Below, piece after piece: positions 2,951-61,109 of a stretch of 64,000 nt of DNA. Origin of the DNA: Girardinichthys multiradiatus (Eukaryota; Chordata; Actinopteri; Cyprinodontiformes; Goodeidae); assembly GCF_021462225.1 (NCBI RefSeq), contig NC_061800.1, positions 1,240,001-1,304,000 of the forward strand, read 5' to 3'. Within the stretch, counting starts at the first letter, position 1, and every line of letters begins with the position of its first letter. A program made the translations under genes and the position numbers. Below the pieces are notes generated by a model. That model saw only the letters and a program-made list of their open reading frames with translations. It was not told the origin of the DNA and did no database searches.

Positions 2951-2964
2951 AAAACAGGGGGGAC

Positions 2965-3375: not shown

Positions 3376-3391
3376 TACATATACATATATA

Positions 3392-11054: not shown

Positions 11055-11059
11055 AGGGT

Positions 11060-13984: not shown

Positions 13985-15594
13985 CAGGTCCTTCTCAAAA
14001 AATTAGCATATTGTGATAAAGTTCATTATTTTCCATAATGTCATGATGAAAATTTAACATTCATATATTTTAGATTCATTGCACACTAACTGAAATATTT
14101 CAGGTCTTTTATTGTCTTAATACGGATGATTTTGGCATACAGCTCATGAAAACCCCAAATTCCTATCTCACAACATTAGCATATTTCATCCGACCAATAA
14201 AAGAAAAGTGTTTTTAATACAAAAAACGTCAACCTTCAAATAATCATGTACAGTTATGCACTCAATACTTGGTCGGGAATCCTTTTGCAGAAATGACTGC
14301 TTCAATGCGGCGTGGCATGGAGGCAATTAGCCTGTGGCACTGCTGAGGTCTTATGGAGGCCCAGGATGCTTCGATAGCGGCCTTTAGCTCATCCAGAGTG
14401 TTGGGTCTTGAGTCTCTCAACGTTCTCTTCACAATATCCCACAGATTCTCTATGGGGTTCAGGTCAGGAGAGTTGGCAGGCCAATTGAGCACAGTGATAC
14501 CATGGTCAGTAAACCATTTACCAGTGGTTTTGGCACTGTGAGCCTGTGCCAGCTCGTGCTGAAAAATGAAATCTTCATCTCCATAAAGCTTTTCAGCAGA
14601 TGGAAGCATGAAGTGCTCCAAAATCTCCTGATAGCTAGCTGCATTGACCCTGCCCTTGATAAAACACAGTGGACCAACACCAGCAGCTGACACGGCACCC
14701 CAGACCATCACTGACTGTGGGTACTTGACACTGGACTTCTGGCATTTCGGCATTTCCTTCTCCCCAGTCTTCCTCCAGACTCTGGCACCTTGATTTCCGA
14801 ATGACATGCAGAATTTGCTTTCATCCGAAAAAAGTACTTTGGACCACTGAGCAACAGTCCAGTGCTGCTTCTCTGTAGCCCAGTTCAGGCGCTTCTGCTG
14901 CTGTTTCTGGTTCAAAAGTGGCTTGACCTGGGGAATGCGGCACCTGTAGCCCATTTCCTGCACACGCCTGTGCACGGTAGCTCTGGATGTTTCTACTCCA
15001 GACTCAGTCCACTGCTTCCGCAGGTCCCCCAAGGTCTGGAATTGGCCCTTCTCCACAATCTTCCTCAGGGTCCGGTCACCTCTTCTCGTTGTGCAGCGTT
15101 TTCTGCCACACTTTTTCCTTCCCATATACTTCCCACTGAGGTGCCTTGATACAGCACTCTGGGAACAGCCTATTTGTTCAGAAATTTCTTTCTGTGTCTT
15201 ACCCTCTTGCTTGAGGGTGTCAATAGTGGCCTTCTGGCCAGCAGTCAGGTCGGCAGTCTTACCCATGATTGGGGTTTTGAGTGATGAACCAGGCTGGGAG
15301 TTTTAAAGGCCTCAGGAATCTTTTGCAGGTGTTTAGAGTTAACTCGTTGATTCAGATGATTAGGTTCATAGCTCGTTTAGAGACCCTTTTAATGATATGC
15401 TAATTTTGTGAGATAGGAATTTTGGGTTTTCATGAGCTGTATGCCAAAATCATCCGTATTAAGACAATAAAAGACCTGAAATATTTCAGTTAGTGTGCAA
15501 TGAATCTAAAATATATGAATGTTAAATTTTCATCATGACATTATGGAAAATAATGAACGTTATCACAATATGCTAATTTTTTGAGAAGGACCTG
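13985..15594 (-). mobile_element. Tc1/mariner transposon, copy 1 (1610 bp)
   Basis: It begins CAGGTCCTTCTCAAAAAATT and ends in the inverted counterpart. The terminal inverted repeats are about 200 bp long and TA flanks both sides (13983-13984, 15595-15596). Its length equals that of copy 2. A single transposase frame is on the minus strand. Confidence 0.95.
14262..15266 (-). CDS. Tc1/mariner transposase, full-length frame with altered catalytic residue
   Basis: The 334-codon frame is uninterrupted. It has an N-terminal helix-turn-helix pair (MGKTADLTAGQKATIDTLKQ, then EISEQIGCSQSAVSRHL), a GRKKCGRKR basic linker near residue 50 and a DDE catalytic domain. The first Asp is in LFSDESKF and the last Glu in SPDLNPIENLW. 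At the second catalytic position it reads QHELAQAH, where copies 2 and 3 read QLDLAPAH, so the metal-binding Asp is replaced by Glu. Cut-and-paste activity needs these three acidic residues, so this protein is probably inactive although the frame is open. The function and fold are from knowledge of the Tc1 family. Confidence 0.93.
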   Translation of the reverse strand: MGKTADLTAGQKATIDTLKQEGKTQKEISEQIGCSQSAVSRHLSGKYMGRKKCGRKRCTTRRGDRTLRKIVEKGQFQTLGDLRKQWTESGVETSRATVHRRVQEMGYRCRIPQVKPLLNQKQQQKRLNWATEKQHWTVAQWSKVLFSDESKFCMSFGNQGARVWRKTGEKEMPKCQKSSVKYPQSVMVWGAVSAAGVGPLCFIKGRVNAASYQEILEHFMLPSAEKLYGDEDFIFQHELAQAHSAKTTGKWFTDHGITVLNWPANSPDLNPIENLWDIVKRTLRDSRPNTLDELKAAIEASWASIRPQQCHRLIASMPRRIEAVISAKGFPTKY

Positions 15595-28686: not shown

Positions 28687-29598
28687 GAATCAGAATCAGA
28701 ATCAGAAAAGCTTTATTGCCAAGTACGTTTTTGGACATACAAGGAATTTGTTTTGGCGTAGTCGGTGCAATACAGTACAAGTTAAACAGTACAAACATAT
28801 CTACAATATAATATAAATATAAGTGCACAGTTTTAAGTGAGTGAGAGTAAATATAGAGCAGTATAAGATGCAAGAGCAATACAACAGTGCAGGTGATCAT
28901 TGTGCAAGTAAAGCAGTGCAAGTAAGCAGGAGTCCAAGCTGAGCGTTAATGTAACGCATAGAGTTACAGGTTACAGGTGTCCTGTCAGCAAAAAAAGGGG
29001 GGGTGTGGGGGAAAGGGGGAATGTCAGGGTGGTTTCCGGGCTTTGTTAACCAGGCTGGTGGCAGATGGGAAAAAACTGTTCTTGTGGCGTGAGGTTTTGG
29101 TCCGGATGGACCGCAGCCTCCTGCCAGAGGGGAGAGTCTCAAAGAGTCTGTGACCGGGGTGGGAGGGATCAGCCAGAATCTTCCCTGCCCGCTTCAGGGT
29201 CCTGGAGGTGTACAGTTCCTGGAGCGACAGTAGACTGCAGCCAATCACCTTCTCAGCAGACCGAATGACACGCTGCAGCCTGCCCTTATCCTTGGCTGTA
29301 GCAACGGCGTACCAGATGGTGATGGAGGAGGTGAGGATGGACTCAATGATGGCTGTGTAGAAGTGCACCATCATAGTCTTTGGCAGGTTGAATTTCTTCA
29401 GCTGCCGCAGGAAGAACATCCTCTGTTGGGCTTTCTTGATGAGGGAGCTGATGTTTGGCTCCCACTTGAGATCCTGGGAGATGATGGTTCCCAGGAAGCG
29501 GAAAGATTCCACAGTGTCAATTGTGGAGTCACAGAGGGTGATGGGGGCAGGTGGGGCTGGGTTCTGCCTGAAGTTCACAACCATCTCCACCCAGATGT
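28687..29598 (-). mobile_element. 5'-truncated L2-type LINE, 3' 0.9 kb
   Basis: It ends on the minus strand in AATAAAGC followed by TTCTGATTCTGATTCTGATT, the tail of fish L2 elements. The coding part 29590-29024 (188 codons, stop at 29024) is the C-terminal part of the reverse transcriptase polyprotein, ending in the FFPSATSLVNKARKPP stretch. It differs from the copy at 45.9-46.46 kb by a single residue noted by eye. It is truncated just upstream of the VNFRQNPAPPAP stretch, the usual result of incomplete target-primed reverse transcription. Confidence 0.9.
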
Positions 29599-30800
29599 CT
29601 CTGTCATTACAAGTTCCAGAACATCTTTATACAGTTGACTTCAAAGCTTACTGACTATGCCTACCCCTTTTTGCAGTCTGGTGTTGTAAATCAGCCAACC
29701 ACCCTTGTGGTATCTATACCATGGCCAAAAGTTGACATTTATTGCTTTATTGTCCCTACAGCCAGCTTTTACTGCTTACAGCTGCAGAGAACCCCTGCTC
29801 CATCCTGACTCCTGCTGTGATCTATGATCTCTCCTCAAGGCTCACTCATGTTAAATCTCAGTTTAATGTTCCCACATGCAAACTAAACTAATATCATGAA
29901 AGTACATTATCTTAATTCTCAACAGTACAAACATTTCCGTTTGGCCATGATAAAGTTGCTCTCTTTCAATCATCTGGTTCCATAACAATTTTCTTTTGTG
30001 GTATTCATCAGCAAGATTATCACAACTCTGAACAATCTATTCTAATCTATCTTTTTTTTTAATTAAATGCAGTAAGTTCTCATTATATTTAAGAATGAGG
30101 TCACTCTTTTTGTTAGTTTCTATTATTTTAATAATGCTTGGTTTACTTTAGGTGTCATTGGTCCAAAACAAAAACTAACTCCACATCCGCTTAGAAGGCT
30201 TAATAAACTTGATGAACACAAAAATGAAGAGCATGTTATGTCTTATAATCTTAGTTTGTCTTACCCAGTTTTATAAACACACCGTACAGTTTCAGCCAGC
30301 TATAGAACTTCCATTTTAATTACACTTTGTATTTATTTCAAGTAACTAAAGTTTGTTTCAATTAACTCAAGTTTTTTTCTATTTCAGTCCAGTACTTCTG
30401 TTAAGGTACATTTCACCTTGTGTTAAATTTGAATCTAGTTTGATCATTCTGAACCTGACCTGAAAAAGTCCAAACATCTGTTAAAATCCTTTTGTTTTAC
30501 CATAAAGAACTGACCTAATATTATTATGGTACTGTTGAGGATCAGACCTGCTCTTGTATTCTTTAATTATTATTGTGCACATATACCCTCATTTTTTAAT
30601 AACATGAAACAGACATTCATTTCACAAAAACAGACAAACAAAATGTACAGACAATGGCCCCATAAAAGTTTGATTACTCTGTTTGTTAAAGAATTGCGAA
30701 AAATTGAGGACAGGTCAATGAACTTTCTTATGTTTATCGGTATTTTCAATACAGGTAGAATCGTTGCTATCTATATGATTTTGGAAAAATTCTGGAAACC
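29599..30800. other. Non-coding stretch, no recognised gene
   Basis: AT-rich, with short frames of no recognisable content. Nothing repeat-like was identified by eye. Confidence 0.35.
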
Positions 30801-35970: not shown

Positions 35971-37580
35971 CAGGTCCTTCTCAAAATATTAGCATATTGT
36001 GATAAAGTTCATTATTTTCCATAATGTAATGATGAAAATTTAACATTCATATATTTTAGATTCATTGCACACTAACTGAAATATTTCAGGTCTTTTATTG
36101 TCTTAATACAGATGATTTTGGCATACAGCTCATAAAAACCCAAAATTCCTATCTCACAAAATTTGCATATTTCATCCGATCAATAAAAGAAAAGTGTTTT
36201 TAATACAAAAAACGTCAACCTTCAAATAATCATGTACAGTTATGCACTCAATACTTGGTCGGGAATCCTTTTGCAGAAATGACTGCTTCAATGCGGCGTG
36301 GCATGGAGGCAATCAGCCTGTGGCACTGCTGAGGTCTTATGGAGGCCCAGGATGCTTCGATAGCGGCCTTTAGCTCATCCAGAGTGTTGGGTCTTGAGTC
36401 TCTCAACGTTCTCTTCACAATATCCCACAGATTCTCTATGGGGTTCAGGTCAGGAGAGTTGGCAGGCCAATTGAGCACAGTGATACTATGGTCAGTAAAC
36501 CATTTACCAGTGGTTTCGGCACTGTGAGCAGGTGCCAGGTCGAGCTGAAAAATTAAATCTTCATCTCCATAAAGCTTTTCAGCAGATGGAAGCATGAAGT
36601 GCTCCAAAATCTCCTGATAGCTAGCTGCATTGACCCTGCCCTTGATAAAACACAGTGGACCAACACCAGCAGCTGACACGGCACCCCAGACCATCACTGA
36701 CTGTGGGTACTTGACACTGGACTTCTGGCATTTTGGCATTTCCTTCTCCCCAGTCTTCCTCCAGACTCTGGCAACTTGATTTCCGAATGACATGCAGAAT
36801 TTGCTTTCATCCGAAAAAAGTACTTTGGAACACTGAGCAACAGTCCAGTGCTGCTTCTCTGTAGCCCAGGTCAGGCGCTTCTGCCGCTGTTTCTGGTTCA
36901 AAAGTGGCTTGACCTGGGAAATGCGGCACCTGTAGCCCATTTCCTGCACACGCCTGTGCACGGTGGCTCTGGATGTTTCTACTCCAGACTCAGTCCACTG
37001 CTTCCGCAGGTCCCCCAAGGTCTGGAATCGGCCCTTCTCCACAATCTTCCTCAGGGTCCGGTCACCTCTTCTCGTTGTGCAGCGTTTTCTGCCACACTTT
37101 TTCCTTCCCACAGACTTCCCACTGAGGTGCCTTGATACAGCACTCTGGGAACAGCCTATTTGTTCAGAAATTTCTTTCTGTGTCTTATCCTCTTGCTTGA
37201 GGGTGTCAATAGTGGCCTTCTAGACAGCAGTCAGGTCGGCAGTCTTACCCATGATTGGGGTTTTGAGTGATGAACCAGGCTTAGAGTTTTAAAGGCCTCA
37301 GGAATCTTTTGCAGGTGTTTAGAGTTAACTCGTTGATTCAGATGATTAGGTTCATAGCTCGTTTAGAGACCCTTTTAATGATATGCTAATTTTGTGAGAT
37401 AGGAATTTTGGGTTTTTATGAGCTGTATGCCAAAATCATCTGTATTAAGACAATAAAAGACCTGAAATATTTCAGTTAGTGTGCAATGAATCTAAAATAT
37501 ATGAATGTTAAATTTTCATCATTACATTATGGAAAATAATTAACTTTATCACAATATGCTAATATTTTGAGAAGGACCTG
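35971..37580 (-). mobile_element. Tc1/mariner transposon, copy 2 (1610 bp), in the ERV2 leader
   Basis: It starts CAGGTCCTTCTCAAAATATT, ends in the inverted counterpart and has TA on both sides (35969-35970, 37581-37582). Comparison with the same leader position in ERV1 shows an empty site, so the insertion happened after ERV2 integrated. Confidence 0.95.
36248..37252 (-). pseudogene. Tc1 transposase, copy 2, early nonsense
   Basis: From the ATG near 37252 the frame is the same as in copy 1, but codon 11 is TAG (at about 37222). The remaining frame is open from 37111 to 36248 (287 codons) and keeps the second catalytic Asp (QLDLAPAH) and the final Glu. The helix-turn-helix N-terminus would be lost if translation began at the internal Met. 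Confidence 0.88.
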
Positions 37581-39860: not shown

Positions 39861-40095
39861 CCACAGGATTAATTAGAAAATTATTATTTTGGACAGTGAC
39901 AGTGCAGGAAGGGATACATTTGCATACAAAGCAACAATGAGAAATATTCCTTACTGAACAGGAGGAACAGTTTTTGAATGAAGTCCCTGATAAGTTATGG
40001 TCAAAAGACCCTACTGATGTGGGTTTAGTAAAGGAGCATTACCTGTTCAGATTAGAGCAAAAACGGAATACAGGCCCAGAGTAAAACAATACCCT

Positions 40096-41624
40096 TTGAA
40101 ACATGATGCACGTGAAGGAATAAAACCAGTAATAAAGGATTTAATAACTGCAGGGGTGATAATAAAATGCGAGGACTCACCATGTAACACCCCCATTTTT
40201 CCAGTTAAAAAACAAGCTCCATCAACAGGATGGCGCATGGTACAAGACTTACAGGCAGTTAATAATGCAGTTGTTCAGAGAGCACCGTGTGTTCCTGATC
40301 CTTATACATTATTAAATTCCCTAAGACCGGATGCTAGAATATTTACTGTAGTTGATATAAGCAATGCATTTTTTCCTGTACCTGTAGATAAAGATAGTCA
40401 GTTCTGGTTTGCATTCACCTTTGAGGGACAAAGATATACTTATACCAGACTACCTCAAGCCTACTGTGAAAGTCCAACTATATACTTTCAGGTAATGAGT
40501 GCAAGTATGGCCAAGTTTGACCCTCCAGGAGGTAGTCAGGTTTTACTATATGTTGATGATGTGCTATTAGCCTCTCCTGATGAGGAGACCTGTAAAAATG
40601 ACACAATAGCATTATTAAAACATTTAGCAGAAGAGGGACACAAAGTCAGTAAAAAGAAACTTCAGTTGTGTAAAAATGAGGTTAAATACCTAGGCCACAA
40701 TCTTAGCGCAGGGGACGCACAATTGTAGAAGAAAGAAAGACTGCAATATTACAAGCTCCAAAACCAGTAACAAAAAAGCAAACGATGTCCTTCCTTGGAC
40801 TAACTAATTATTGTAGAAACTGGGTGCCAAATTATGCAGAAATAGTAGCTCCATTAAACAAATTAATGTATGAGGAAGAGCTGAAAATGACGTCTGAACT
40901 AAGATGGAGTGTAGAAGCTGAAGAAGCATTTACCAACATAAAACAAGTTCTAGTTTCCAGTACTGCTTTGGCATTACCAGACTATAGTAAACCGTTTGTT
41001 CAGATGGTGGACTGCAAGGGACATTTTATGACTTCAGTTCTGGTTCAACAACATGGAGATAAAATGAAACCAATTGCCTATTTCTCTTCAAAACTAGATA
41101 GTGTTGCGTGTGCGCAGCCATATTGTGTGAGAGCTGTAATTGCAGCCTCCATGGCAGTTGAAGTCAGTGCCACAATAGTGTTATTTCACCTTTTAACTTT
41201 AAGAGTTCCCCATGCAGTTTCAGCATTATTACTGCAGACGAATTTGACCTTTCTATCACCTGCTAGACATTTGTCCTGCATGTCAACCTTACTGTCACAA
41301 CCACACTTAACTATAGAAAGGTGCACCACTTTAAACTCAGCAACACTGTTACCCACACCTGAAGATGGAATTCAACATGATTTTCAAGAATTAGCAGAAA
41401 AAGAAGCAAAAACAAGAAGTGATTTGCAGGATTTACCTCTTTTGCATGGCAAAATAGTTTATGTAGATGGTTCCTCTAGAAAAGATGAGAGAGGGAAGAC
41501 AAACAGGATATGCAGTGGTGTCAAGAAATACAGTGTTAAAAGCGGAGCAATTACCTTCACATTATTCTGCGCAAGCTGCAGAGTTAATTGTGCTAACCGA
41601 GGCCTGCAAACTATTTGCAGATGA
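40096..41624 (+). pseudogene. ERV2 reverse transcriptase and start of RNase H
   Basis: The frame 40096-40728 holds fingers and palm with LPQAYCESPTIYF and YVDDVLLAS (catalytic YVDD). A one-base change near 40710 shifts the frame. 40785-41624 holds thumb and connection (SFLGLTNYCRNWVPNYAEI) and the start of RNase H (KIVYVDGSSRKDERG, first Asp). It is close to the ERV1 RT (9999-11054). Confidence 0.9.
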
Positions 41625-44568: not shown

Positions 44569-44976
44569 TACAGGTCCTTCTCAAAATATTAGCATATTGT
44601 GATAAAGTTAATTATTTTCCATAATGTAATGATGACAATTTAACATTCATATATTTTAGATTCATTGCACACTAACTGAAATATTTCAGGTCTTTTATTG
44701 TCTTAATATGGATGATTTTGGCATACAGCTCATGAAAACCCAAAATTCCTATCTCACAAAATTAGCATATCATTAAAAGGGTCTCTAAACGAGCTATGAA
44801 CCTAATCATCTGAATCAACGAGTTAACTCTAAACACCTGCAAAAGATTCCTGAGGCCTTTAAAACTCCCAGCCTGGTTCATCACTCAAAACCCCAATCAT
44901 GGGTAAGACTGCCGACCTGACTGCTGTCCAGAAGGCCACTATTGACACCCTCAAGCAAGAGGATAAGACACAGAAA

Positions 44977-46796
44977 CCCCCCACACCACCCCCACCTCCC
45001 CAACCTCAAGAGGGGCCTTGGCACCTCCAACCCCCACCAGCCCCCTACCCACGCCGAGGACGGCTCTTTCCATCCAGGAGAGGGACGTCAACAAACTCTT
45101 CAGGAGACAGAACCCCCGGAAAGCTGCTGGTCCGGATTCTGTCTCACCAACCAGCCTGAAGCACTGCGCTGATCAGCTGTCTCCAGTCTTCACAGACATT
45201 TTTAACACCTCACTGGAGACATGTCATGTGCCAGCCTGCTTCAAGTCCTCCACCATCGTCCCTGTTCCCAAGAAGCCAAGGACCACAGGGCTTAATGACT
45301 TCAGACCCGTCGCCCTGACCTCTGTGGTGATGAAGTCCTTTGAGCGCCTTGTGCTCTCACACCTAAAAGACATCACCGACCTCCTCCTGGACCCCCTGCA
45401 GTTTGCCTACAGAGCCAACAGGTCTGTAGATGATGCAGTCAACCTAGCCCTTCACTTCATCCTCCGGCACCTGGACTCCACAGGAACCTATGCCAGGATC
45501 CTGTTTGTGGATTTCAGCTCTGCCTTCAACACCATCGTCCCAGCTCTGCTCCAGGAGAAGCTCTCCCAGCTGAGTGTGCCCGACTCCACCTGCAGGTGGA
45601 TCACTGACTTCCTGTCTGACAGGAAGCAGCGCGTGAGGCTGGGGAAGCACGTCTCTGACTCCCTGACCATCAGCACCGGTTCCCCCCAAGGCTGTGTTCT
45701 CTCTCCTCTGCTCTTCTCCCTGTACACCAACAGCTGCACCTCCAGTCACCAGTCTGTCAAGCTTCTGAAGTTTGCGGACGACACCACCCTGATCGGACTC
45801 ATCTCTGATGGTGACGAGTCCGCGTACAGATGGGAAGTGGACCATCTGTTGGACTGGTGCAGCCAGAACAGCCTTGAGCTCAACGCTCTAAAGACAGTGG
45901 AGATGGTTGTGAACTTCAGGCAGAACCCAGCCCCACCTGCCCCCATCACCCTCTGTGACTCCACAATTGACACTGTGGAATCTTTCCGCTTCCTGGGAAC
46001 CATCATCTCCCAGGATCTCAAGTGGGAGCCAAACATCAGCTCCCTCATCAAGAAAGCCCAGCAGAGGATGTTCTTCCTGCGGCAGCTGAAGAAATTCAAC
46101 CTGCCAAAGACTATGATGGTGCACTTCTACACAGCCATCATTGAGTCCATCCTCACCTCCTCCATCACCATCTGGTACGCCGCTGCTACAGCCAAGGATA
46201 AGGGCAGGCTGCAGCGTGTCATTCGGTCTGCTGAGAAGGTGATTGGCTGCAGTCTACTGTCGCTCCAGGAACTGTACACCTCCAGGACCCTGAAGCGGGC
46301 AGGGAAGATTCTGGCTGATCCCTCCCACCCCGGTCACAGACTCTTTGAGACTCTCCCCTCTGGCAGGAGGCTGCGGTCCATCCGGACCAAAACCTCACGC
46401 CACAAGAACAGTTTTTTCCCATCTGCCACCAGCCTGGTTAACAAAGCCCGGAAACCACCCTGACATTCCTCCTTTCCCCCACACCCCCCCTTTTTTTTGC
46501 TGACAGGACACCTGTAACCTGTAACTCTATGCGTTACATTAACGCTCAGCTTGGACTCCTGCTTTACTTGCACAATGATCACCTGCACTGTTGTATTGCT
46601 CTTGCATCTTATACTGCTCTATATTTACTCTCACTCACTTAAAACTGTGCACTTATATTTATATTATATTGTAGATATGTTTGTACTGTTTAACTTGTAC
46701 TGTATTGCACCGACTACGCCAAAACAAATTCCTTGTATGTCCAAAAACGTACTTGGCAATAAAGCTTTTCTGATTCTGATTCTGATTCTGATTCTG
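44977..46796 (+). mobile_element. L2-type LINE insertion, 5'-truncated, in Tc1 copy 3
   Basis: Flanked by AGAAA on both sides (44972-44976, 46797-46801). The 3' end is AATAAAGC followed by four TTCTGA-type units, as in fish L2. It begins with a Pro-rich linker and lacks the endonuclease domain. Confidence 0.93.
45018..46463 (+). CDS. L2 reverse transcriptase polyprotein, C-terminal 481 codons
   Basis: The RT domain is open throughout, with motif A near LFVDFSSAFNTIVP, motif B near TGSPQGCVLSPLLF and the catalytic FADDTTLIG near 45770. The C-terminal part ends FFPSATSLVNKARKPP. RT copies the element's own RNA into DNA at a nicked target. The ATG used here lies in the Pro-rich linker and the normal N-terminal endonuclease is missing, so the insertion is probably not autonomous even though its RT is open. 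It shares its 3' part with the 29.0-29.6 kb copy almost perfectly, so it is a recently active family. Confidence 0.9.
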   Translation: MAPPTPTSPLPTPRTALSIQERDVNKLFRRQNPRKAAGPDSVSPTSLKHCADQLSPVFTDIFNTSLETCHVPACFKSSTIVPVPKKPRTTGLNDFRPVALTSVVMKSFERLVLSHLKDITDLLLDPLQFAYRANRSVDDAVNLALHFILRHLDSTGTYARILFVDFSSAFNTIVPALLQEKLSQLSVPDSTCRWITDFLSDRKQRVRLGKHVSDSLTISTGSPQGCVLSPLLFSLYTNSCTSSHQSVKLLKFADDTTLIGLISDGDESAYRWEVDHLLDWCSQNSLELNALKTVEMVVNFRQNPAPPAPITLCDSTIDTVESFRFLGTIISQDLKWEPNISSLIKKAQQRMFFLRQLKKFNLPKTMMVHFYTAIIESILTSSITIWYAAATAKDKGRLQRVIRSAEKVIGCSLLSLQELYTSRTLKRAGKILADPSHPGHRLFETLPSGRRLRSIRTKTSRHKNSFFPSATSLVNKARKPP

Positions 46797-48008
46797 AGAA
46801 AGAAATTTCTGAACAAATAGGCTGTTCCCAGAGTGCTGTATCAAGGCACCTCAGTGGGAAGTCTGTGGGAAGGAAAAAGTGTGGCAGAAAACGCTGCACA
46901 ACGAGAAGAGGTGACTGGACCCTGAGGAAGATTGTGGAGAAGGGCCGATTCCAGACCTTGGGGGACCTGCGGAAGCAGTGGACTGAGTCTGGAGTAGAAA
47001 CATCCAGAGCCACCGTGCACAGGCGTGTGCAGGAAATGGGCTACAGGTGCCACATTTCCCAGGTCAAGCCACTTTTGAAACAGAAACAGCGGCAGAAGCG
47101 CCTGACCTGGGCTACAGAGAAGCAGCACTGGACTGTTGCTCAGTGGTCCAAAGTACTTTTTTCGGATGAAAGCAAATTCTGCATGTCATTCGGAAATCAA
47201 GGTGCCAGAGTCTGGAGGAAGACTGGGGAGAAGGAAATGCCAAAATGCCAGAAGTCCAGTGTCAAGTGCCCACAGTCAGTGATGGTCTGGGGTGCCGTGT
47301 CAGCTGCTGGTGTTGGTCCACTGTGTTTTATCAAGGGCAGGGTCAATGCAGCTAGCTATCAGGAGATTTTGGAGCACTTCATGCTTCCATCTGCTGAAAA
47401 GCTTTATGGAGATGAAGATTTAATTTTTCAGCTCGACCTGGCACCTGCTCACAGTGCCAAAACCACTGGTAAATGGTTTACTGACCATAGTATCACTGTG
47501 CTCAATTGGCCTGCCAACTCTCCTGACCTGAACCCCATAGAGAATCTGTGGGATATTGTGAAGAGAACGTTGAGAGACTCAAGACCCAACACTCTGGATG
47601 AGCTAAAGGCCGCTATCGAAGCATCCTGGGCCTCCATAAGACCTCAGCAGTGCCACAGGCTGATTGCCTCCATGCCACGCCGCATTGAAGCAGTCATTTC
47701 TGCAAAAGGATTCCTGACCAAGTATTGAGTGCATAACTGTACATGATTATTTGAAGGTTGACGTTTTTTGTATTAAAAACACTTTTATTTTATTGGTCGG
47801 ATGAAATATGCCAATTTTGTGAGATAGGAATTTTGGGTTTTCATGAGCTGTATGCCACAATCATCCGTATTAAGACAATAAAAGACCTGAAATATTTCAG
47901 TTAGTGTGCAATGAATCTAAAATATATGAATGTTAAATTTTCCATCATTACATGATGGAAAATAATTGACTTTATCACAATATGCTAATATTTTGAGAAG
48001 GACCTGTA

Positions 48009-50171
48009 TATGAAGCGGAATAATTTTGAAAATAATGATCCAATCCTGCGTCCGTACATTACCGGAGCCCCATAAAACCTGGCAGATTACCGCCTGATTG
48101 ACTTACATAGTAATTTACAAAGCGATTTGGATCACGTCTCAGACTTAGCTGTGCCATGCTCTCTCTTGCCTGCTTGATGCAGTGTTGAAGGACCAGGGTA
48201 ATATGAATGATAACCAATCAGTCTTAGAGGTTATATATTGTCAAAATAAGGTGAGATCTTTCCATGTAATCCATGCAGCATTTAGTAACTGCTCACAGTT
48301 AACTCCATAAAAGTTACAATAAATATCATTATGTGTAATCCATGCAATCATTATTAAAACACAGTTGAAGCAGTGAGGAGTGAAACAAGCATGTTCTCAT
48401 ATTCTGGAGCTGAGAGACTGGAGAGGCCTGTGTGGAGCCATGTATTATCTGCCACATGTTATCTGTCTTATCTTTTGCAAAAATATAAACAAGTATATCC
48501 AAAGAAATGATGTATGATGATTTTATATTCTTTCACATGTATTGAATAAAATTAGTAGTCTTTGATTAACAAGTTAAAAGATGTATGATTGAAATGTGGT
48601 TAAGAACTGAGAATTAGAGGAAAAAACATTAAGGTTTGACATTCTCAATCAGCTATATATGAAAGAAATATAACATTAATCATCTGTAAAGAATGAATAA
48701 AAAGAATGAAGTGATGGTTTTGAAATTGTGTTTTAAATTGAAAGCTGAAAGCTGAAGAATGAAATGTGTAATGTGTAAAGTTTAAAACTGAGCAGATTAG
48801 GGAAACATTGGAGGATGAAAAGGAGTGACGAGAGCCAGCTGCATGCTGACAGCGACGGGAGGATGCGACTACAGACCAGCATGGCTATTATTAGCATCTC
48901 CAAGGCTGAGAAGCAGAATCAGTGGGTCACAATGACCATGACGAAAGTATTGAGCAATAATCAAGAAGCTGAGCCGAATAGGTTGCACAATAACTAAGAA
49001 GCCTAATAAGGGCCTGACCGGTGCAGGCATCAAGCGCTATAAAAACAATGATGAGAGCAGAAACGGGGTTGTTTCCTCGCAGAAGACCAGCGAACAAGAT
49101 CTGACGGAGAGACGAAGCTTGGATGGAAAAGGAACAGAGACACAGCCCCATTGATCGATTGCATTAAAGAGGATCAACCCGTGAGCCCAGAAAGGACTGT
49201 GCCTCAGAATTAAGAATCTGATTTAATCTAAAGCCTTTTTATCCAGACAACAGAAGTGAACTTGATCGGTGAACAGCTGATTGCTCTAAGTTTCAGGCTT
49301 CTGGAAGTCCTGAATCAACCTCATTTATGTCTCCGGGTTTCCTTCAACTCTTCAGCCACTGGAAACTACTGTTTTAGGATGTAACAACAAAGATTCTGTT
49401 TAACCATCAAAGCCTGGAGCATCAGTGCCTGCCACTTAAAGGAAGAAAACTGAAGATTAAGTCGTATTCCCTTCAGGAAACCACTCGTTGTTACCAGAAG
49501 AATTCTTCTCCATCAGGTGCATGGATGAGCCTCCGTCTTCAAAGCCTCTCCAAACCCACTAGTTTCAGCATCAGGGAAAGACAGGTTGATTTGATTGATT
49601 CATTTCTATTATTGAAATGATTTTGTGTTGCCAAATTTAAGCTGTTACTGACCCCTGCAAAAGCGTTACTAATTAAAGAAAGCATATAAAATTCTAGTTA
49701 AATCGTGGACATTCAATTATTTGAGTCACCGTATTGTTGGTTTTTCATTGGTGGTAAAAAGTCTTGTTACCTGGTTCTAAGATATTTTAGGAGGTTTTTA
49801 TAGGTTGCCTTAGCCAAGTTTGTTAAAACAGCGCCCTTGGGGCTCGTGCTGAGCTACTAAAATTAACCCAGCCCATATACCAAGAGCCAGTTGTAAATTA
49901 GGGAATGAGCAGCCGTGAACAAAAGTGACTGTCGAAGGTGTGGACGGCTGCGAGAGGCTACTCGGTCGCCCGGACCTCCAGTTGAAGAAGGGCGAGACTT
50001 TTGGATGAAGGCTGTCAGAGGCTAGGCGAGTCATTTCCCGACACCAGCTTAAACAGAACTTTCAGTAAAGGTTTAGGGAAGTCCGGACCCGTTGGATGAG
50101 AACTGGATTGAGCAATCCCTTTAGACATGGGGAAGTAGGAGGGAGGGGTTAGCTCATCGGGCAACGAAAGG
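48009..50171 (+). other. Region upstream of a tRNA-Lys primer site: probable LTR and leader of the macro-domain retroelement
   Basis: No gene is recognised. A TATA box (TATAAAAA, 49038-49045) lies about 1.1 kb before the primer site, and an ATTAAAG poly(A)-like signal is near 49163. These fit U3, R and U5 of a long LTR that ends just before 50172. The start of the LTR could not be placed because no second copy is present. The first 70 bp may be the tail of the ERV2 env. Confidence 0.5.
49038..49045 (+). promoter_or_regulatory. TATA box of the probable LTR
   Basis: CGCTATAAAAAC lies upstream of a poly(A)-like signal and the primer site. Confidence 0.45.
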
Positions 50172-50189
50172 TGGCGCCCGAACAGGGAC
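50172..50189 (+). promoter_or_regulatory. Primer-binding site, tRNA-Lys3 type
   Basis: TGGCGCCCGAACAGGGAC is the exact 18-nt complement of the 3' end of vertebrate tRNA-Lys(UUU), the same primer site as in lentiviruses (sequence from memory). It marks the start of the internal region of the element that follows. Confidence 0.88.
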
Positions 50190-50510
50190 CCTGACAGAGA
50201 TAAAGGGGCCCCAGAAGAAGGATGCTCAGCAGAGAGACGTGTCTGCCTGAGCACCCTGGACAGACAGCTTGAAAGGGAGTAAGGTTGTCTGTGACTGTTA
50301 AGGCCGTCAGTCACAACCCCCGCAGTAACTGCATAGAGTGCAGGTGAGGATAGGGCTTTATTGAGGGTAGAATGACCAAACCCAGACAGTAAAGCTAGTA
50401 GCCAAATAGTCTTAATCCATCCCTACTCGAAGGATCCTCGAGAGGCTTTGGAGACGGACAACTCGAGACGACAAAGATGTAGCGATGGACGAAGAGAGTG
50501 AAATGCAGGA

Positions 50511-51599
50511 ATGGACAGAGCTGAAGGACCACTCCCTTCAACAGAACAACCGACATCAACACATTTAGAGTTACACTGCATACCTACCGAGGTGCTGTTA
50601 GGTGGGGACGGATGTTCAACATGGGTTCCATCGGTAAAGAAAATGTTCTTCAGTTTCAACAAAGAGCAATCGAAAGAAGCACTAGAGAGTGAGCTAACAG
50701 ATCACCTCCAAAGAGATGACGTATTTTATTGTTCAGAGATAAAATATGGATATAGACTTGTCGTGGTGCCATGCCCCAAGGCAGTCCAGAAGAAGGAAGA
50801 AATTGGTCGATGGTGACATTGGTGGACAGGGTTTATTGAACTATGGGGACTGGGGAAACTGATGTCACTGTACAGTCCATCCGAGAAATGTGACCCGATC
50901 GTAAATATGGTTTCTAGTGAGTCTGGACTAAATGGGTACCTCACAAGCTCCAACACCAGAGCCACGGCAAGGTTAAAAGAGTATGAACCGAAGATCAGAA
51001 GGATGAGCCAGTTCAAAGAAAAGCTCCGAGCCATGCAAGATGATGACAAAGAGAGTTTGCTTGAGGAGTGTAGTGACTCTGGACCGAACGGGTACCCTAC
51101 AAACCCCGACATCAGATCCCCGGCAAGCTTAAAAGAATATGAAACGGATATCAGAAAGAAGAGCCAGTTCAAAGAAAGGCTCCGAACCATCCAAGACGGC
51201 GACAAAGTGAGTTTACTTGAGGAGTGTAGTGAGTCTGGTGGACCAGATCAAAGAAAAGACCACAGAGCTCCCTTAGAGATACCAGCTTATGATTTAACTG
51301 AAGAAACAGAGAGTGAAGAAGAGGGCATCGAGTCAGAACAAGAGCAAGACCAAAGAAAAGCTGAACCCAGCCAAGAATCAACTATTACCCCATTCATCAC
51401 AAAGTCGAAAGATGAGATACTTCAACAGATTGCTCTGGCCAGACAAGAACTGCAAGAGACTGCCAGGCGGAGAGCCCACTTATCAGCAGCCTTCGAGCGC
51501 CATAAGGGGAGCCTCCAACGTATGGCCAACACCTCAAGCCACAAGGAACATGACCCTACACAAAGTAAAGTAAGAGACCTTACCTTCCAGTATGAATGA
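50511..51599 (+). pseudogene. gag N-terminal region with tandem repeats
   Basis: One frame from the ATG at 50511, broken by a single TGA at 50814, runs to 51599 and after that stop continues open in the same frame to about 51800. The first 100 residues (SVKKMFFSFNKEQSKEALES, LVVVPCPKAVQKKEEIGRW) have no known family. From 50916 two copies of a 52-residue unit (start SESGLNGY / SDSGPNGY, end LLEEC) are in tandem with a third start at 51228. A strongly acidic/Gln-rich stretch and an alpha-helical segment rich in Arg/Gln/Glu (IALARQELQETARRRAHLSA) follow. It occupies the place of a matrix domain. It appears to be part of one long gag together with the next entries. Confidence 0.65.
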
Positions 51600-51682: not shown

Positions 51683-52708
51683 TCAGAAGTCAGACAGAGT
51701 CATGATGTCCTGGAGCCGATGCCCACAGATGCAAGACGAATTTCCCTGCAAAACGGGACTCGACTCTACCAAGTTATCGGAGACCCCTGGGGCATAGAGG
51801 GAGACGGACTGTTAGTTTTCACAAATGATAACTTCAAGATCCATAATACCAAATTCAGAAAGAGGTTAAGAGCCCAGGCAGGGGGAGATTACAAACAAGA
51901 GGTTCGAGAGCTGAGGAAACAAGTGAGCCAGAACAAAGCAACCAAAGTGCATCTGACTAGTGGGGCCGACCTCGCTTATTATGCTGTAATCCACTCTCCC
52001 ATTGCCGCTTACAAAAAGGGTGAAGACTTGAAAGAGTACAGAGAGAAAATGTGGGTAGCCCTGAAAGAAGGACTGAATGCTGCCATCAACCACGGCCTCA
52101 GAAGGGTAACAATATGCCTAGACGGACTGAGATTGCATAACCTGCCATGGGAGTCGGCAGAAAAAGTAGCCATTGCAACAGCACACCATGTAGTCAAGAA
52201 TCTGCTGACAGATGCCTCACTGACCGAAATAGTCATCATCACTTCCCTTAGCCAGCATGAGAGTCGGAGGAAGATAGAGCTGGCATTAGTAGAAAGGATG
52301 GATGAGAAGAAGCCGAAAGATCCTCCTCAATTAGAGATTTCAAGAATCAAACAAGGCAGTGAAATCAAACCACACCCTGATGAAAAACGCTATCTGCATA
52401 AGAGTGAGACCAACCAAGCCCGCCTGGAGAAAAGACCAAAATCAGCAAAGAGGGACGCAGCTGCCCCTTCAACCTCCGTGCTGGCTGTGGAACATAGCCT
52501 AGCTAGTTGCAGCCCGGAAGATCTAGATGAAACAGAGCAGGTTCCAACAAAAGATTTAAAAGCAAAGAAGAAGATAAGACAAAGTCTAGCCCAAGAGGAG
52601 ATCCTGAGTCCATTTAAAATGGAGCCCTTGAACCCAGAAAGAGAAGATAGTCAGTGGCTCGGAAGAAGAAGAACCATCAGAACGGGAGACCTCTGGGGCA
52701 GAGAGTGA
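51683..52708 (+). pseudogene. Macro-domain-like segment of gag
   Basis: The frame is open from 51683, with ATG at 51719, to 52708. Residues about 15-185 after the ATG read as a macro domain in order: YQVIGDPWGIEGDGLLVFTN (strand, then the N-A-x-N loop position, here TNDN), GGDYKQEVRELRK (A-G-x-x-L-x-x-E helix position), KVHLTSGADLAYYAVIHSPI (T-x-G-x-x-L-x-x-x-V-I-H), LKEGLNAAINHGLRRVTICL, ESAEKVAIATAHHVVKNLL and LTEIVIITS. Macro domains bind ADP-ribose and some remove it from proteins; viral ones counter host ADP-ribosylation. Here the Gly-rich ligand loops are altered, so catalysis is unproven. The C-terminal third is a charged linker. The frame joins the next gag part by a shift near 52655. 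The assignment is by pattern, not by search. Confidence 0.72.
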
Positions 52709-53986
52709 TGACAGTGAAAGCCTTTTTTCAATCCCAGTGCAGCCGGCAACCCCTCACAAGCCACTCAAAGTAGGACAGAGAAAAGGGTAAAAGAAAGCAC
52801 TGGAAGTGTTTGACATCTACCGGGTCTAAGAAAGAATGGCCAGAAACCTGACATGGGGGCCGGTTCAAGTGAATGATGGCCGTCGAGCGTACATACCAGA
52901 AGCTGGACAGAGAGACTATCACATCCCGGCTGTATGGGCTGACCGCCTGGAAGACAAAGTCGAACTCAGGGTAAAAGCAACAGTTGGAGAATGGGCCAAC
53001 GTCCTAATGATGCCATCGTACCACACCTTAGCAACTTATCAGCCCCTGACCAGCAAGTTCAGATCTGCTTATGTTGGAGTTGTGCATGATGTGATGTTAA
53101 GAAGACTAAAGAAAGCCGCATACAAGTATGCACAAGAGATCGAGCGACAGGTTGATGAGTTGTCAGCCGAGGAAGAAGGGGAAGAACCTCCACTGCCGTC
53201 AGCACTGCTCTCCACAAGCAAGCCCACAGGGAAGTTGTCTGAACAACACACGGCATTCAGCCCTGAAGCTGATGTTTTTTGTGAGTACAAAAAGATCAAG
53301 ACCTTAGTTAGAGAGAAAATATCAGAAGAAAGCAATGAAGATTACATCAAATATGTGTGGCCGATAATTACCAATGCTACTGAAAGTGATGAAGCTAAAA
53401 CGTTGTGGCTGAGCCATGTAACAGCCCATCCCTTAGACAAGCAAGGAACAGCTCAAAGCCATTATAGGAGGTTGGTGTTGGAAGACATGGATGATGAAGA
53501 CTCCCAGATCAAAAGAGCTAGACTGCGCATGGATGGAGGTCAGCGCCTTGCACCGGTGTGGCATGTGCTTAAGCAAACAATCTCACCAGCTAGATACGTG
53601 AAAGCCCTCCGAGAAGTAACCAAAGGGAGGAGAGGAGAGATAGCTTTTGCTAAAATGCTGATGCAGGGTACACAGTTCCACAGATGGATCAAGCAGTGAT
53701 TTCTTATGATCTGGAGCAGCAGTTTTATGAAGAAAGAAGAACGAAAGAGGCAGGACAAGGGGCCAAACCAACAACTAAGGCCAGTGTGAAAGCTCCAGCC
53801 AACCCCCCTAACAGACCACTGCTCCAGAGAAGAGAAGAACCGCAAAGAAGATTTCACGGACCACCAGCATCACAAGGCCCACAAAAAAAAAACACCTTTC
53901 TCCCTAGAGAAGAGTACGACAAACTGTCCTCTGAAGAAAAGAAGGTCCTCTTCGAGTCCGAAGGGACCGGTGGGCCTGCCAAGTAA
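52656..53986 (+). pseudogene. gag capsid and nucleocapsid-like region
   Basis: An acidic linker (SEEEEPSEREPSG-like, about 52660-52710) leads, across two stops (52788, 52828), into the ATG-started frame 52836-53699. This frame contains a conserved-looking stretch GPVQVNDGRRAYIPEAGQRD, a long helical middle and a probable capsid end (AQSHYRRLVLEDM). Near 53690 the frame shifts to 53684-53986, a short basic, Pro/Gln/Arg-rich tail (RRFHGPPASQGPQKKN) that replaces the usual zinc knuckle; no CX2CX4HX4C is present. The terminal TAA overlaps the pol start. No retroviral family match is obvious, which supports an unusual lineage. Confidence 0.6.
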
Positions 53987-57185: not shown

Positions 57186-57199
57186 GGATAACCAGAAAC

Positions 57200-57772
57200 C
57201 GGAGAGATGGCCAGTGAACCAAGCACCATGCCACCCTACATCAGACTGGCCACTATATATGGGGTGGTTGCCATTCGAAGAACCACTTCAGGGCTTTGGG
57301 CAGGAAGAGCCTTGAAGAAATTGGAACTTGCTAAAAAAGGATTCCTGTCAACAGAAGATGAAATGCTGTGGTGACGAGAGGTCAAGAACTGTTGCGCAAT
57401 CTGCTCGGGCCCAAGTCAGCTCAAAGTCCGCTGGGAAGGACAAGGACGAGAGAAACCACTACATCATAACACAGGTGGCAATGAGTTAGACAAACTGCCG
57501 TTACCTTTAACTGCCCGTCAAGGTAACAGACATCTTCATTTGTGGGTCATGCCAGTTCATTTCTTAAGTACTGTGATTCCTGTGGAGCCCAGACAAGATC
57601 AGGAAGGCTGATGCAGGTGGTTCAGGCAGAGGGGTGGCAAATAAAGCGATTTTATGACCTACTCAGATCCTTTAAACCGCATCCTGCTGAAGGAAGCCCT
57701 GCACCGTATAGACAAGCCACCCAGGACCAAGACAGTGTGGTATTAATAGCTCGACCATCAGCTCCTGGATAG
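57200..57772 (+). pseudogene. Short ORF region after integrase, unidentified
   Basis: A frame with MASEPSTMPPYIRLATIYGV, then a stop at 57373, then a Cys-containing stretch (KNCCAICSGPSQLKVRWEGQ) continues to about 57600. A shift then reaches a second piece ending at 57770 (VVQAEGWQIKRFYDLLRSF). No signal peptide, membrane anchor or CX6CC is visible, so it does not look like a normal env; it could be an accessory or env leader region cut by truncation of the element. Function unknown. Confidence 0.4.
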
Positions 57773-57985
57773 GGGACCAACAAATCTGCTGACAGCATCA
57801 GTCAGGGAGTCCTGGCCATATGATCCAGCCTCTGGCCAGGTAAGCCAGAAAATATATCTCTGGAATAGTTTATACAAATAAAGTTTATCTCAGGCTATGT
57901 TGTGATATCACCGGTCTGAAGTGTAGTCTTATGATGGTCTTTGCGTAGACGAAATTTAAAGGAACGTTTTGATCCGATTTAATTT

Positions 57986-58399
57986 CTATATTGATATTTT
58001 CTGATAGTGGGCGGGGTTAAACGTCAGAGCAATCATATCACTGAAGTCGCCTTGTACTTTGACGGTCCGCAGTAAAGGTGCAAAAAAGTGTTTGAAAAAC
58101 ACTTCCATCTCTGTCTTGAGTTGAATAACGCTGTTATAGTAGCCAGCTCTGATCCTTTGCATATTGATCTCCACATCACCAACCTTCCTCCATTCAAAGT
58201 AGGCATCATGATCCGGTAAATTATGCCATGTATGAGGATATGAAATCTCGGCTAATGCAACCATCCATTGGCATTCTAAATCAATATGTTGAGCTAAATT
58301 TACACGGAAACTTGAACTGGTATTATTTTTAAACACTTCCATGCTAGCATTAGATGGAAGAGTAACGTAAAAGCCATCATCCTCTAACTGACGGTTCAT
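57986..58399 (-). pseudogene. Polinton conserved small virion-type protein, N-terminal part
   Basis: From the ATG at 58399 the frame reads DDGFYVTLPSNASMEVF, FRVNLAQHIDLECQWMVALA and EISYPHTWHNL, the usual start of a conserved Polinton protein found beside integrase in fish elements (identity from memory). It ends early at 57986. The minus-strand sequence continues with readable but shifted pieces (FVYAKTIIRLHFRPV), so a frameshift truncated it. The exact role is not known to me; a minor virion component is plausible. Confidence 0.7.
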
Positions 58400-58441
58400 G
58401 ATGCTGTGTCAACTGTGAGGTTTAGTGCAAACCTTTTTATA

Positions 58442-59480
58442 CGTTACGAAGTTCATCAAACCTGATCCAACTGTTGAATTTCTCAGGCCAGTTTTTCCAG
58501 CTTACAAAAACCTGTTTGACACCTTTGACTGTACGTCGTTTTAATATGTTTTCCACTTGATACATCTTGTCGTTAAATATTTTTACTTTTTGAAGCTCCT
58601 CTGCGTAAAAGGAACCCTCGATAGGTTCTCAATCGAAATCTTTGAGTTTGTATACAGGAGGAGATCGGGGTATCTGCTCTTCATCCGTAAAACTCAGTTT
58701 GTATTTTTTGTCCAACATTCCACGGACTTTGGATATTCTGACAAGATCCCCTTGTTTAAAAGTTGTCACTGAGTCCTTGCAATATCTGTTGGACTTAACT
58801 TCATACAGATTCTGAAACACTTGAAAGGCACTCTGTGAGGTCACTTCAATAGGGCTCATTTTAATGCTGGAGTAGTAGCTGTGGTTGTAGCTTCTGGCTA
58901 GGTTTTGCAGGACATCGACATACCACCGGGTGTTGTTAGCTGTAAAATATCTCCACATCCTTGTTTTTAATGTGCGGTTAAATCTCTCGACCACTGAAGC
59001 TTTTGCTTCACTCGCTGTCGCGAAATGTTCAATACCGTGTTTCTCCATTAAAACCTTAAATTTCTTGTTAAAAAATTCTTTACCGGCATCAGTCTGAAGT
59101 TTTTTGGGGATCTGACTTTCTTTAAAAACTGATTCAAATGCCTTTACCACCTCAGCGGCTGTTTTCCTCTTCAAAACTCGTACATACGCCCTTTTTGAAA
59201 AGATGTCAATGATGGTTAATAAATAATTATAACCATAATTTTCCTTGGCCAGAACTTGCATGTCACAGAGATCAGCCTGGAACTGTCTCAATGGTCTGGT
59301 GACAAAAATTTTGTTTCTCGGGAACTTTATTCTTGCAGGTTTATGTAGAGTATAGGTATCTTCTCCTGATAAAATATCTTAAATTTTTTCAACCGCAACC
59401 TTCTTTCCCGTTTCATCTTGCATAACCCTCCTCAACCTATCTACACCCCAAAACTTAATATACTTTCTTCATCAACCGTC
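58442..59480 (-). pseudogene. Polinton integrase with chromodomain
   Basis: The minus strand begins with a zinc-domain-type segment GVDRLRRVMQDETGKK (about 59440). After a stop near 59380 it continues through the rve core: FQADLCDMQVL (first Asp), LQTDAGKEFFN (second Asp) and ASVVERFNRTLK (Glu). A GDLVRISKVRGMLDKKY segment comes after the core. After one TGA near 58628 it continues as SFYAEELQKVKIFNDKM and YQVENILKRRTVKGVKQVF, then FVSWKNWPEKFNSWI, a chromodomain. Retroviral-type integrase inserts Polinton DNA, and the chromodomain may target chromatin. Two nonsense changes, otherwise open. Confidence 0.88.
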
Positions 59481-59800
59481 TTCCTACCATCTCTGCCTTA
59501 TGCTCACTCTGACGATTACTTGTTAAATAATGAGAAAAAAACACACCGGAGGGTAGATTTATCTCTTTTTTTATTTTTTTATTTAATAGTAAAAAGAAAA
59601 AAAAAATCAGATAAAATGCAGATTAATGCAGATGAATTCAAACACTACAAGCTTTTTAAACAACACTTTCGGGAAAGGTTAATATGTTCCCACTTTAATT
59701 GTATTTAATAGTAAAAAAGAAAAAAAAAAAGAAGAAAAATCATATAATGCAAATTAATTAAAGTACTGGAATACTAAAAATGATACAACAAGTCATCAAA
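59481..59800. other. AT-rich spacer in the Polinton
   Basis: Poly-A/T runs and no protein-like frame. Confidence 0.4.
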
Positions 59801-59809
59801 CATGTGAGA

Positions 59810-60520
59810 TCAGTTTGTCAGTCCGTAGCACTCTGAAACAGAGTTAAGTTGTTTGAGGTGTTTCTCTTTGGCCATGCAATCATAAACGTGTGCTATTGCA
59901 ATGTGGATGCCTTGTACCGATTTCAGTTCATATAAAACCGTCTCTGCAATCGTTTTCACTCTGAAGTCATCCGCTTGTATGCGTCGAAGTATCAGAAGAT
60001 TCTGAATAGCAGGAATGAGTTTGGGGGTTACGAGTCGTCGCACGATGCGTTGAAGGTTGACTTGGTAATAATCCTCCCCCAATACCTCCAAGCATTGGTG
60101 CTGACGCTGGCTCGGGTGGTTCGTTATGCACCCATAGCAGGTTTCTCTGAGATAGTTCAAAGAGGTTATGTTGAATAAATGAAGTATTGCTGTTTTCACT
60201 GTATTGATGAGGGTGGTTGAGAACCAACTGTCAATTTCGTCCCCCTGGTTACTCTCATCCTCCGCTGAAGGCTGAGGGTCCTGCATCGGTTCCAGGGTTT
60301 GTGTAGGGGCTTCGGTAGAGGGTGAGTAGCTGGTAGCTACCTCATCCTCCACGACCACCTTCTTGTCTACAGGCAGGACATTTGTGTCTACAGACTCAGC
60401 CATGAATAGCGGCGATGGTGAGTAGAGGTCTGGAGAAGGCGGTTGATACATTTTCATGTTGTATCCTGTAGGTGATGCAGGACTGAAGTGGGTCTCTGAG
60501 AATGAGGACATTGAGGTGGA
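59810..60520 (-). CDS. Polinton-associated ORF, unidentified
   Basis: The likely start is the Met near 60510 (MSSFSETHFSPASPTGYNMK) rather than the upstream one. A Ser/Pro-rich N-terminal 110 residues is followed by an acidic linker. A compact C-terminal half has CYGCITNHPSQRQHQCLEVL, with Cys and His placed as in a metal site. Helix-like segments RIVRRLVTPKLIPAIQNLLI and VYDCMAKEKHLKQLNSVSEC follow. The frame is open to the stop at 59810. I do not recognise the family. It lies upstream of integrase on the same strand, and its intact frame contrasts with the broken neighbours. Confidence 0.6.
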   Translation of the reverse strand, partial: STSMSSFSETHFSPASPTGYNMKMYQPPSPDLYSPSPLFMAESVDTNVLPVDKKVVVEDEVATSYSPSTEAPTQTLEPMQDPQPSAEDESNQGDEIDSWFSTTLINTVKTAILHLFNITSLNYLRETCYGCITNHPSQRQHQCLEVLGEDYYQVNLQRIVRRLVTPKLIPAIQNLLILRRIQADDFRVKTIAETVLYELKSVQGIHIAIAHVYDCMAKEKHLKQLNSVSECYGLTN

Positions 60521-60549
60521 TGGTTTGGGAGCAAAGCGGTTGGATCTCT

Positions 60550-61109
60550 GACCCGAAATAATTAAAACAGTACTCAGAAATATTCTCTCCTCAAACAATA
60601 CTCACGAGAGGGTACTTTTATTCTTCAAAAAGCGCACAGTGTCATATTAATCACAAATTCCAGAAGTCACCCTGGCCTCCAGTCTGTGCAGGGTGGTTTT
60701 TATACAGATACAAAGCATTGGTGTGTATTTGGGCCTTCTTAACCAATTGAAATCATTCTTCTCCTTTACATAACATTCCTTGGCACATTCACACTGTTAT
60801 CTCTACTTTTTCTGAGAATACACTCCGGCCCAACATCTGGAAAACATCAGATTGGCGTACGTGACAACACTCTCATGACTTTATTAAGATTGCCAGGTCT
60901 GTTGACCTGGCAGTGTTCACCAGTTTTCCTGGTTGCCTGCAATAACAAGTTCATTTGTCTTTCCTCTCGCCAAGAACTTTCCTCTAATGTAATCTGTTTC
61001 CCAGCTTGCATGTCTCCACTCAGAGTGAACTTATCACAGAGTTCATTTTATTATGGTAAAGACAATAATAACACTTTTGTCTAATTAAACAGAGCTTTAC
61101 GCTTCCACA
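60550..61109 (-). repeat. ERV-type LTR (560 bp)
   Basis: On the minus strand it starts TGTGGAAGCGTAAAG and ends TTTCGGGTCA. It has a TATAAAAACC box (complement near 60700) and an AATAAAAG signal (complement near 60617). A purine tract TTAGGGGGAATA abuts its start, so it is the 3' LTR of an element extending to the right. A matching 5' LTR is not in the window. Confidence 0.7.

What the first reader, a model, noticed from the sequence alone, without database searches (positions are those of the whole stretch)
51683..52708. A macro-domain-like segment inside the gag region of a retrovirus-like element
The frame shows, in order, the strand and loop pattern of macro domains (GDPWGIEGDGLLVFTN, then T-S-G-x-x-L-x-Y-Y-A-V-I-H, then helix and strand blocks). 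It is flanked by gag-type sequence and followed by protease, RT, RNase H and DD35E integrase. RNA viruses such as coronaviruses and alphaviruses carry macro domains to counter PARP-based antiviral defence; I know of no retrovirus with one in gag. If real, this could be an undescribed retroelement strategy or a captured host PARP/macro gene.
Basis: partly seen in the sequence, partly recalled or inferred. Interest (0 to 1): 0.88.

Follow-up and report, generated by a model that had tools for sequence, protein, structure and literature searches.

The report
Macro domain in fish foamy-like Gag
A family of foamy-virus-like retroviruses stranded in fish genomes carries, inside its structural Gag protein, a domain predicted to have the shape of the cell's ADP-ribose-binding macro domain but without the usual enzyme residues, and its preservation suggests it did a real job for the virus.

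Summary

The residues that published work ties to ADP-ribose hydrolysis are absent by alignment, and a different loop (C-x-D-G-L-R) is invariant instead. Macro-domain ORFs in fish retroviruses were reported before (Basta 2009, seen only through PMC4977317), and a toad retrovirus Gag in the viral fold library matches too. I rate it a new variant of a known kind.

The parts
48239..50169 (+). 5' LTR of the window copy (begins TGTCAAAATAAGG)
   Evidence: 5' boundary within 48236-48240 in eight other copies, six of them inspected base by base, and 3' boundary at 50169-50170 in three LTR fragments elsewhere; copy L026 repeats the first 57 bases of the LTR 8.7 kb downstream; the window copy itself has no 3' LTR
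50172..50189 (+). primer binding site, lysine-tRNA type
   Evidence: TGGCGCCCGAACAGGGAC two bases after the LTR; the assignment to tRNA-Lys is recalled
50502..51599 (+). N-terminal part of gag (one frame cut by a stop), matrix-like by position only, with an imperfect tandem duplication at 50915-51082 and 51071-51238
   Evidence: 50817-51599 has no Pfam match above cut-off
51710..52324 (+). macro domain
   Evidence: Pfam PF01661, predicted fold, dN/dS 0.185 between subfamilies, frame control
52325..52829 (+). charged linker of gag
   Evidence: dN/dS 0.305 for 52325-52663
52830..53699 (+). conserved gag region, capsid by position only
   Evidence: 46-50% identity to six Gags or Gag-Pols of other sources; fold not established
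53654..53986 (+). basic C-terminus of gag without cysteine, ending in TAA
53986..57185 (+). pol: own ATG overlapping the gag stop, DTG protease, RT, RNase H, DD35E integrase; interrupted in this copy
   Evidence: Pfam RVT_1, RNase_H, rve; best PDB matches of RT and integrase; junction
57186..57847 (+). start of the region after pol, truncated
   Evidence: similarity to copies L014, L023 and L028 ends at 57845-57847

Best explanation
The window holds a decayed, 3'-truncated copy of a foamy-like endogenous retrovirus (FLERV) of ray-finned fish whose Gag contains a macro domain between its N-terminal part and its capsid-like part. Shown by computation: the profile match and predicted fold, the position in one Gag frame, the many copies, the presence at the same place in Gags of other fish, and purifying selection. 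Inferred: the domain is a non-hydrolysing binding module. Because every Gag molecule would carry it, it would sit in many copies inside each particle and on the incoming core. I think it most likely binds a host ligand through its remodelled pocket: an ADP-ribose-like group, a nucleic acid or a modified host protein. That would help Gag assemble or help the incoming core stay attached to chromatin or another host site. I put about 0.9 on the identity and about 0.4 on this role.
Against: No ligand was tested. The pocket result is modest, I drew the loop limits myself from the model's topology, and the strands (0.77) are more conserved than the pocket loops. Scanned whole, P0010 (E 0.0016) and P0008 (0.083) stay below Pfam's cut-off, and P0009, P0011, P0012 and the partly deleted P0001 show no Macro match at E<=1. 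Only one of five AlphaFold models was good. Within subfamily A the macro dN/dS is 0.474, and over all pairs 0.342. Attachment to chromatin is an idea by analogy to foamy Gag, recalled and not tested. I could not search for copies lacking the domain.
Confidence: 0.55

Rival explanations
1. The domain is an active ADP-ribosylhydrolase that removes ADP-ribose from viral or host proteins and so counters PARP defence, as in coronaviruses and alphaviruses.
For: Macro fold close to PARP14 and MacroD2 structures. Purifying selection. The window copy keeps an Asp in the GD motif; in SARS-CoV-2 the Asp at what I take to be this place coordinates the adenine (PMC7729036 passage).
Against: [quoted passage not shown] Here loop 1 has no glycine run, its candidate Asn is N in two and D in four of six compared sequences, and loop 2 reads DGLR. 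The GD Asp is D in one, S in four and E in one of the six. The Pfam match begins only at profile position 17, which I recall as lying past the loop 1 motif.
Confidence: 0.12
2. The fold is kept only as a structural part of Gag, a spacer or assembly interface, with no ligand.
For: Sits in a structural polyprotein; hydrolase residues lost; the strands are the most conserved class (mean 0.77).
Against: The longest invariant block lies in a loop on the pocket side (D-G-L-R; 6 of 12 columns of loop 2 invariant), while the loops away from the pocket average 0.57.
Confidence: 0.25
3. A recent capture of a host macro gene by one element in this genome.
For: Best matches are to animal and related macro domains such as macroH2A.
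Against: Same segment at the same place in the Gags of Larimichthys, Siganus and two other sources at 35-43% identity.
Confidence: 0.04
4. An unrelated insertion or a chance resemblance.
For: Low sequence identity to known macro domains (about 12-20%).
Against: Pfam, predicted fold and selection results agree, and the genome search gave 121 rows.
Confidence: 0.02

Closest known systems
[quoted passage not shown] Aiewsakun and Katzourakis 2017, PMC5512871, passages read)
   Same: RT nearest to foamy RT, lysine-tRNA primer site as in their AciFLERV, further reading frames after pol; Larimichthys crocea is on their list of hosts and yields one of our Gag relatives.
   Different: The passages read describe no macro domain: 'ADP-ribose' occurs 0 times and the 4 occurrences of 'macro' are macroevolution terms. 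Named FLERV sequences were not compared here.
Fish epsilon-like ERVs with macro domain ORFs (Basta et al. 2009, cited in PMC4977317, passage)
   Same: A fish endogenous retrovirus that encodes a macro domain.
   Different: The review calls them additional open reading frames in epsilon-like sequences; here it is inside Gag of a foamy-like element. The original paper is not held, so overlap cannot be excluded.
Gag of Rhinella marina endogenous retrovirus (UniProt A0A2U9K508, predicted structure)
   Same: Its predicted structure matches our domain at E 1.2e-06, TM 0.67 of the query, in a protein named Gag.
   Different: 14% identity; lineage, and whether its authors noted the fold, unknown here.
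macroH2A macro domain
   Different: A histone part, not a viral Gag; 17-20% identity; loop 1 glycines of macroH2A (alignment) are missing here.
Nidovirus, alphavirus and rubella macro domains
   Same: Macro fold inside a viral polyprotein (nidovirus and rubella matches).
   Different: Those sit in replicase proteins and many keep hydrolase residues, though PMC10221186 reports losses in some alphaviruses; this one sits in Gag and lacks them.

Membership tests
Macro domain (PF01661) | Pfam score above the curated cut-off | tested here: met
   32.1 bits against 22 for the window frame, 25.9 and 25.8 for L009 and L013; not reached by P0001, P0008-P0012 scanned whole
Macro domain (PF01661) | three-layer macro fold | tested here: met
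Active ADP-ribosylhydrolase macro domain | Asn/Ser and Gly residues of loop 1 (NAAN and triple glycine) | tested here: not met
   N in two, D in four of six sequences; no glycine run in loop 1
Active ADP-ribosylhydrolase macro domain | hydrophobic plus aromatic pair in loop 2 | tested here: not met
   loop 2 is C-x-D-G-L-R in six of six; loop position inferred from the model and alignment
ADP-ribose-binding macro domain | adenine-binding Asp after strand 2 | tested here: inconclusive
   D in the window and in five of the six other genome copies of A3 (L018 has N); S or E in the five sequences from other sources
ADP-ribose-binding macro domain | binding of ADP-ribose | not testable with these tools
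   needs purified protein
Foamy-like ERV | RT and integrase closest to foamy viruses | tested here: met
   PDB phmmer: the first five chains (7ksf, 7kse, 7o0h, 7o0g, 7o24; 115.8-119.5 bits) are foamy RTs as I recall them (one is named Peptidase A9), then 8r0s 70.9, MLV-type about 57, HIV about 45. Integrase: 3dlr 54.6 and PFV integrase 53.4, HTLV-2 48.6, so a small margin. No tree was made
Foamy-like ERV | Pol with its own start codon, separate from Gag | tested here: met
   gag TAA followed by or overlapping a pol ATG in 14 of 14 junctions found, 21 copies examined; that this is a foamy trait is recalled. Against it, database models P0009 and P0012-P0014 run Gag and Pol in one protein
Foamy-like ERV | lysine-tRNA primer binding site | tested here: met
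   50172-50189; PMC5512871 reports a tRNA-Lys site in AciFLERV (passage)
Foamy-like ERV | no Cys-His box in Gag | tested here: met
   no cysteine in the basic C-terminus 53654-53986 or in that of P0007 (read); that this is a foamy trait is recalled
Foamy-like ERV | env and accessory genes after pol | tested here: inconclusive
   open frames follow pol in copies L010 and L013 but none was searched; the window copy is truncated at 57847
Foamy-like ERV | groups with named FLERVs in an RT tree | not tested
   no reference RT sequences at hand
Fish epsilon-like ERV with macro ORF | same gene arrangement as in Basta et al. 2009 | not testable with these tools
   paper not held

The most novel reading that the evidence does not exclude
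Ray-finned fish foamy-like retroviruses made a non-enzymatic macro domain a standing part of their Gag shell, with a pocket rebuilt around an invariant C-x-D-G-L-R loop. With very many copies per particle it would work as a built-in reader of a host mark or nucleic acid that guides assembly or holds the incoming core at chromatin, a Gag strategy that I know from no other retrovirus.
Probability: 0.3. Interest if true: 0.8.

Novelty: new variant of a known kind. Interest (0 to 1): 0.6.

Why it matters
Viral macro domains are known mostly as parts of replicase proteins. A selected macro domain inside a retroviral structural protein, at one place in the Gags of distant fish, points to a role of ADP-ribose-type recognition, or of this fold as a plain binding module, in retrovirus particles. 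The isolated domain is small, so its ligand and activity can be tested directly.

Tried and rejected

Not answered: a count of macro genes in the own genome (family PF01661, 14 tries) and a search of the own genome with the capsid-like part to look for copies without the macro domain (12 tries).

Literature: in the rows listed (several lists were capped, for instance 25 of 1,599 papers) I saw no paper on a macro domain in a foamy-like Gag; only open-licence papers are held. Papers seen as passages: PMC4977317, PMC10499221, PMC7729036, PMC10221186, PMC9503650, PMC5512871, PMC6431247, PMC8278194; in PMC6001957 the five terms asked for did not occur. Basta et al. 2009 was not seen, nor was the cane-toad virus paper (recalled, looked up by a recalled DOI without success).

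Full report

The element. Shared boundaries with other copies place a 5' LTR at 48239-50169, followed by a lysine-type primer site at 50172-50189. In copy L026 the first 57 bases of this LTR recur 8.7 kb downstream. Gag and pol run from about 50.5 kb to 57185; similarity to other copies ends near 57847. The window copy is broken: gag lies in frames ending at 50816, 51599, 52708, 53699 and 53986, and pol in frames ending at 55152, 56322 and 57185. Copy L009 has the whole Gag (N-terminal part, macro domain, capsid-like part and basic end) in one open frame of 1164 aa. Copy L013 has an open pol of 1076 aa. The five best PDB matches of RT (115.8-119.5 bits) are foamy RTs as I recall them; the next is 70.9 bits, MLV-type about 57, HIV about 45. 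Integrase is nearest to foamy integrase by a small margin, 54.6 and 53.4 against 48.6 bits for HTLV-2. A weak match to the spumavirus protease family, below its cut-off, appears in the Siganus relative (E 0.068). In 14 of 14 gag-pol junctions found among 21 copies examined, the gag stop is followed by or overlaps an ATG that opens pol, although the Larimichthys and three Siganus database models run Gag and Pol together. Together this fits the foamy-like ERVs of ray-finned fish described in PMC5512871.

Is the domain a fixed part? The genome search gave 121 matching rows, some of them pieces of one copy, with 118 of 307 candidates scored. I fetched 20 of these places, chosen for long frames plus some diverged ones: all 20 have the Gag N-terminal part before the domain, 18 have the capsid-like part, 18 have RT and 19 some pol. 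As they were chosen by the domain, they cannot show copies without it. Outside this genome, P0009 (Larimichthys crocea), P0011-P0014 (Siganus canaliculatus) and P0008 and P0010 (no organism given) carry the segment upstream of the capsid-like part; P0014 was checked only for the DGLR motif. The searches drew words partly from the macro segment, so Gags without it were less likely to be found.

Selection. I set two subfamilies by identity: A (window, L014-L016, L018, L019, L021-L024, L026, L027) and B (L009-L013, L020); L017, L025 and L028 were left out of both. A copy entered a domain's count if it covered 80% of it, so the numbers differ: 18 grouped copies for macro, 9 for integrase. The median A-B dN/dS is 0.467 and 0.757 for the two N-terminal parts, 0.185 for macro (range 0.135-0.512, 72 pairs), 0.305 for the linker, 0.187 for the capsid-like part, 0.142 RT, 0.176 RNase H and 0.136 integrase (an RT value was computed in the wrong frame and is dropped). 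Broken copies are included, their stops skipped; with ten stop-free copies the bootstrap range for macro is 0.115-0.263. In the two wrong frames the macro value is 1.06 and 1.38, and differences fall mostly on third codon positions (0.262 against 0.114 and 0.077; 30 pairs). Within A the value is 0.474 and within B 0.156; the higher A value is what decay after insertion would give. So the domain was kept by selection while the elements were active. No tree-based test was made.

Function. Published work ties hydrolysis to Asn/Ser and Gly flanking loop 1 and a hydrophobic-aromatic pair in loop 2 (PMC10221186, passages), and to the NAAN and triple-glycine motifs, with an Asp that coordinates adenine (PMC7729036, passages). 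In six sequences (window, P0008, P0009, P0010 and two of Siganus) loop 1 has no glycine run and the candidate Asn is N twice and D four times; the Asp is D once, S four times, E once; loop 2 is C-x-D-G-L-R in all six. The pocket-side loops are more conserved than the rest, 0.73 against 0.64; 6 of 184 circular shifts reach this difference. The strands stand at 0.77, the loops away from the pocket at 0.57. I drew these loops from the model's topology. The simplest reading is a non-hydrolysing domain with a rebuilt binding site. That it reads ADP-ribose, nucleic acid or a host protein, and where in the viral cycle, is inference.

What is known. PMC4977317 states that some epsilon-like fish ERVs include additional reading frames for macro domain proteins, citing Basta et al. 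2009 (passage). That paper is not held, so I cannot say whether any of its elements is of the present kind. A Gag of the cane-toad ERV is the fifth-best match of our model among viral predicted structures. In the listed rows of ten paper searches I saw none that describes a macro domain in a foamy-like Gag. The fair label is a new variant of a known kind.

Noticed in passing
57986-60601, minus strand: An element next to the truncated end: an integrase frame at 58629-59378 (rve E 5.1e-13) with two frames without Pfam match at the thresholds used (57986-58408, 59810-60601); it recalls a Polinton-like element, which was not tested.
   Followed up: partly
50915-51238 and other copies: Imperfect tandem duplication (168-base copies, 83% identical, offset 156) in the Gag N-terminal part; in many other copies the alignments break at this place, suggesting copy-number differences.
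   Followed up: no
44967-46463 and 29024-29626: Frames carrying the ALKBH8_N Pfam signature, the first together with an RT, a LINE-like combination.
   Followed up: no
3638-4153, 14262-15302, 36248-37219, 46763-47728: Four frames with Tc1/mariner-type transposase signatures (HTH_Tnp_Tc3_2 in all, DDE_3 in three).
   Followed up: no
10278-11060 and 40018-41624: Two further RT regions, the second followed by RNase H, apart from the element studied.
   Followed up: no
L029:675-1837 and 1976-3721: Downstream of copy L009 an LTR-like piece of the same family is followed by a 582-aa frame that looks RT-like by eye.
   Followed up: no
L030 and L031: Several open frames of 120-494 aa follow pol in two copies, in the place where PMC5512871 puts accessory genes and env; none was searched.
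   Followed up: no
viral fold library, A0A2U9K508: Predicted structure of the Rhinella marina ERV Gag matches the macro model: macro domains in Gag may be wider than foamy-like elements.
   Followed up: partly
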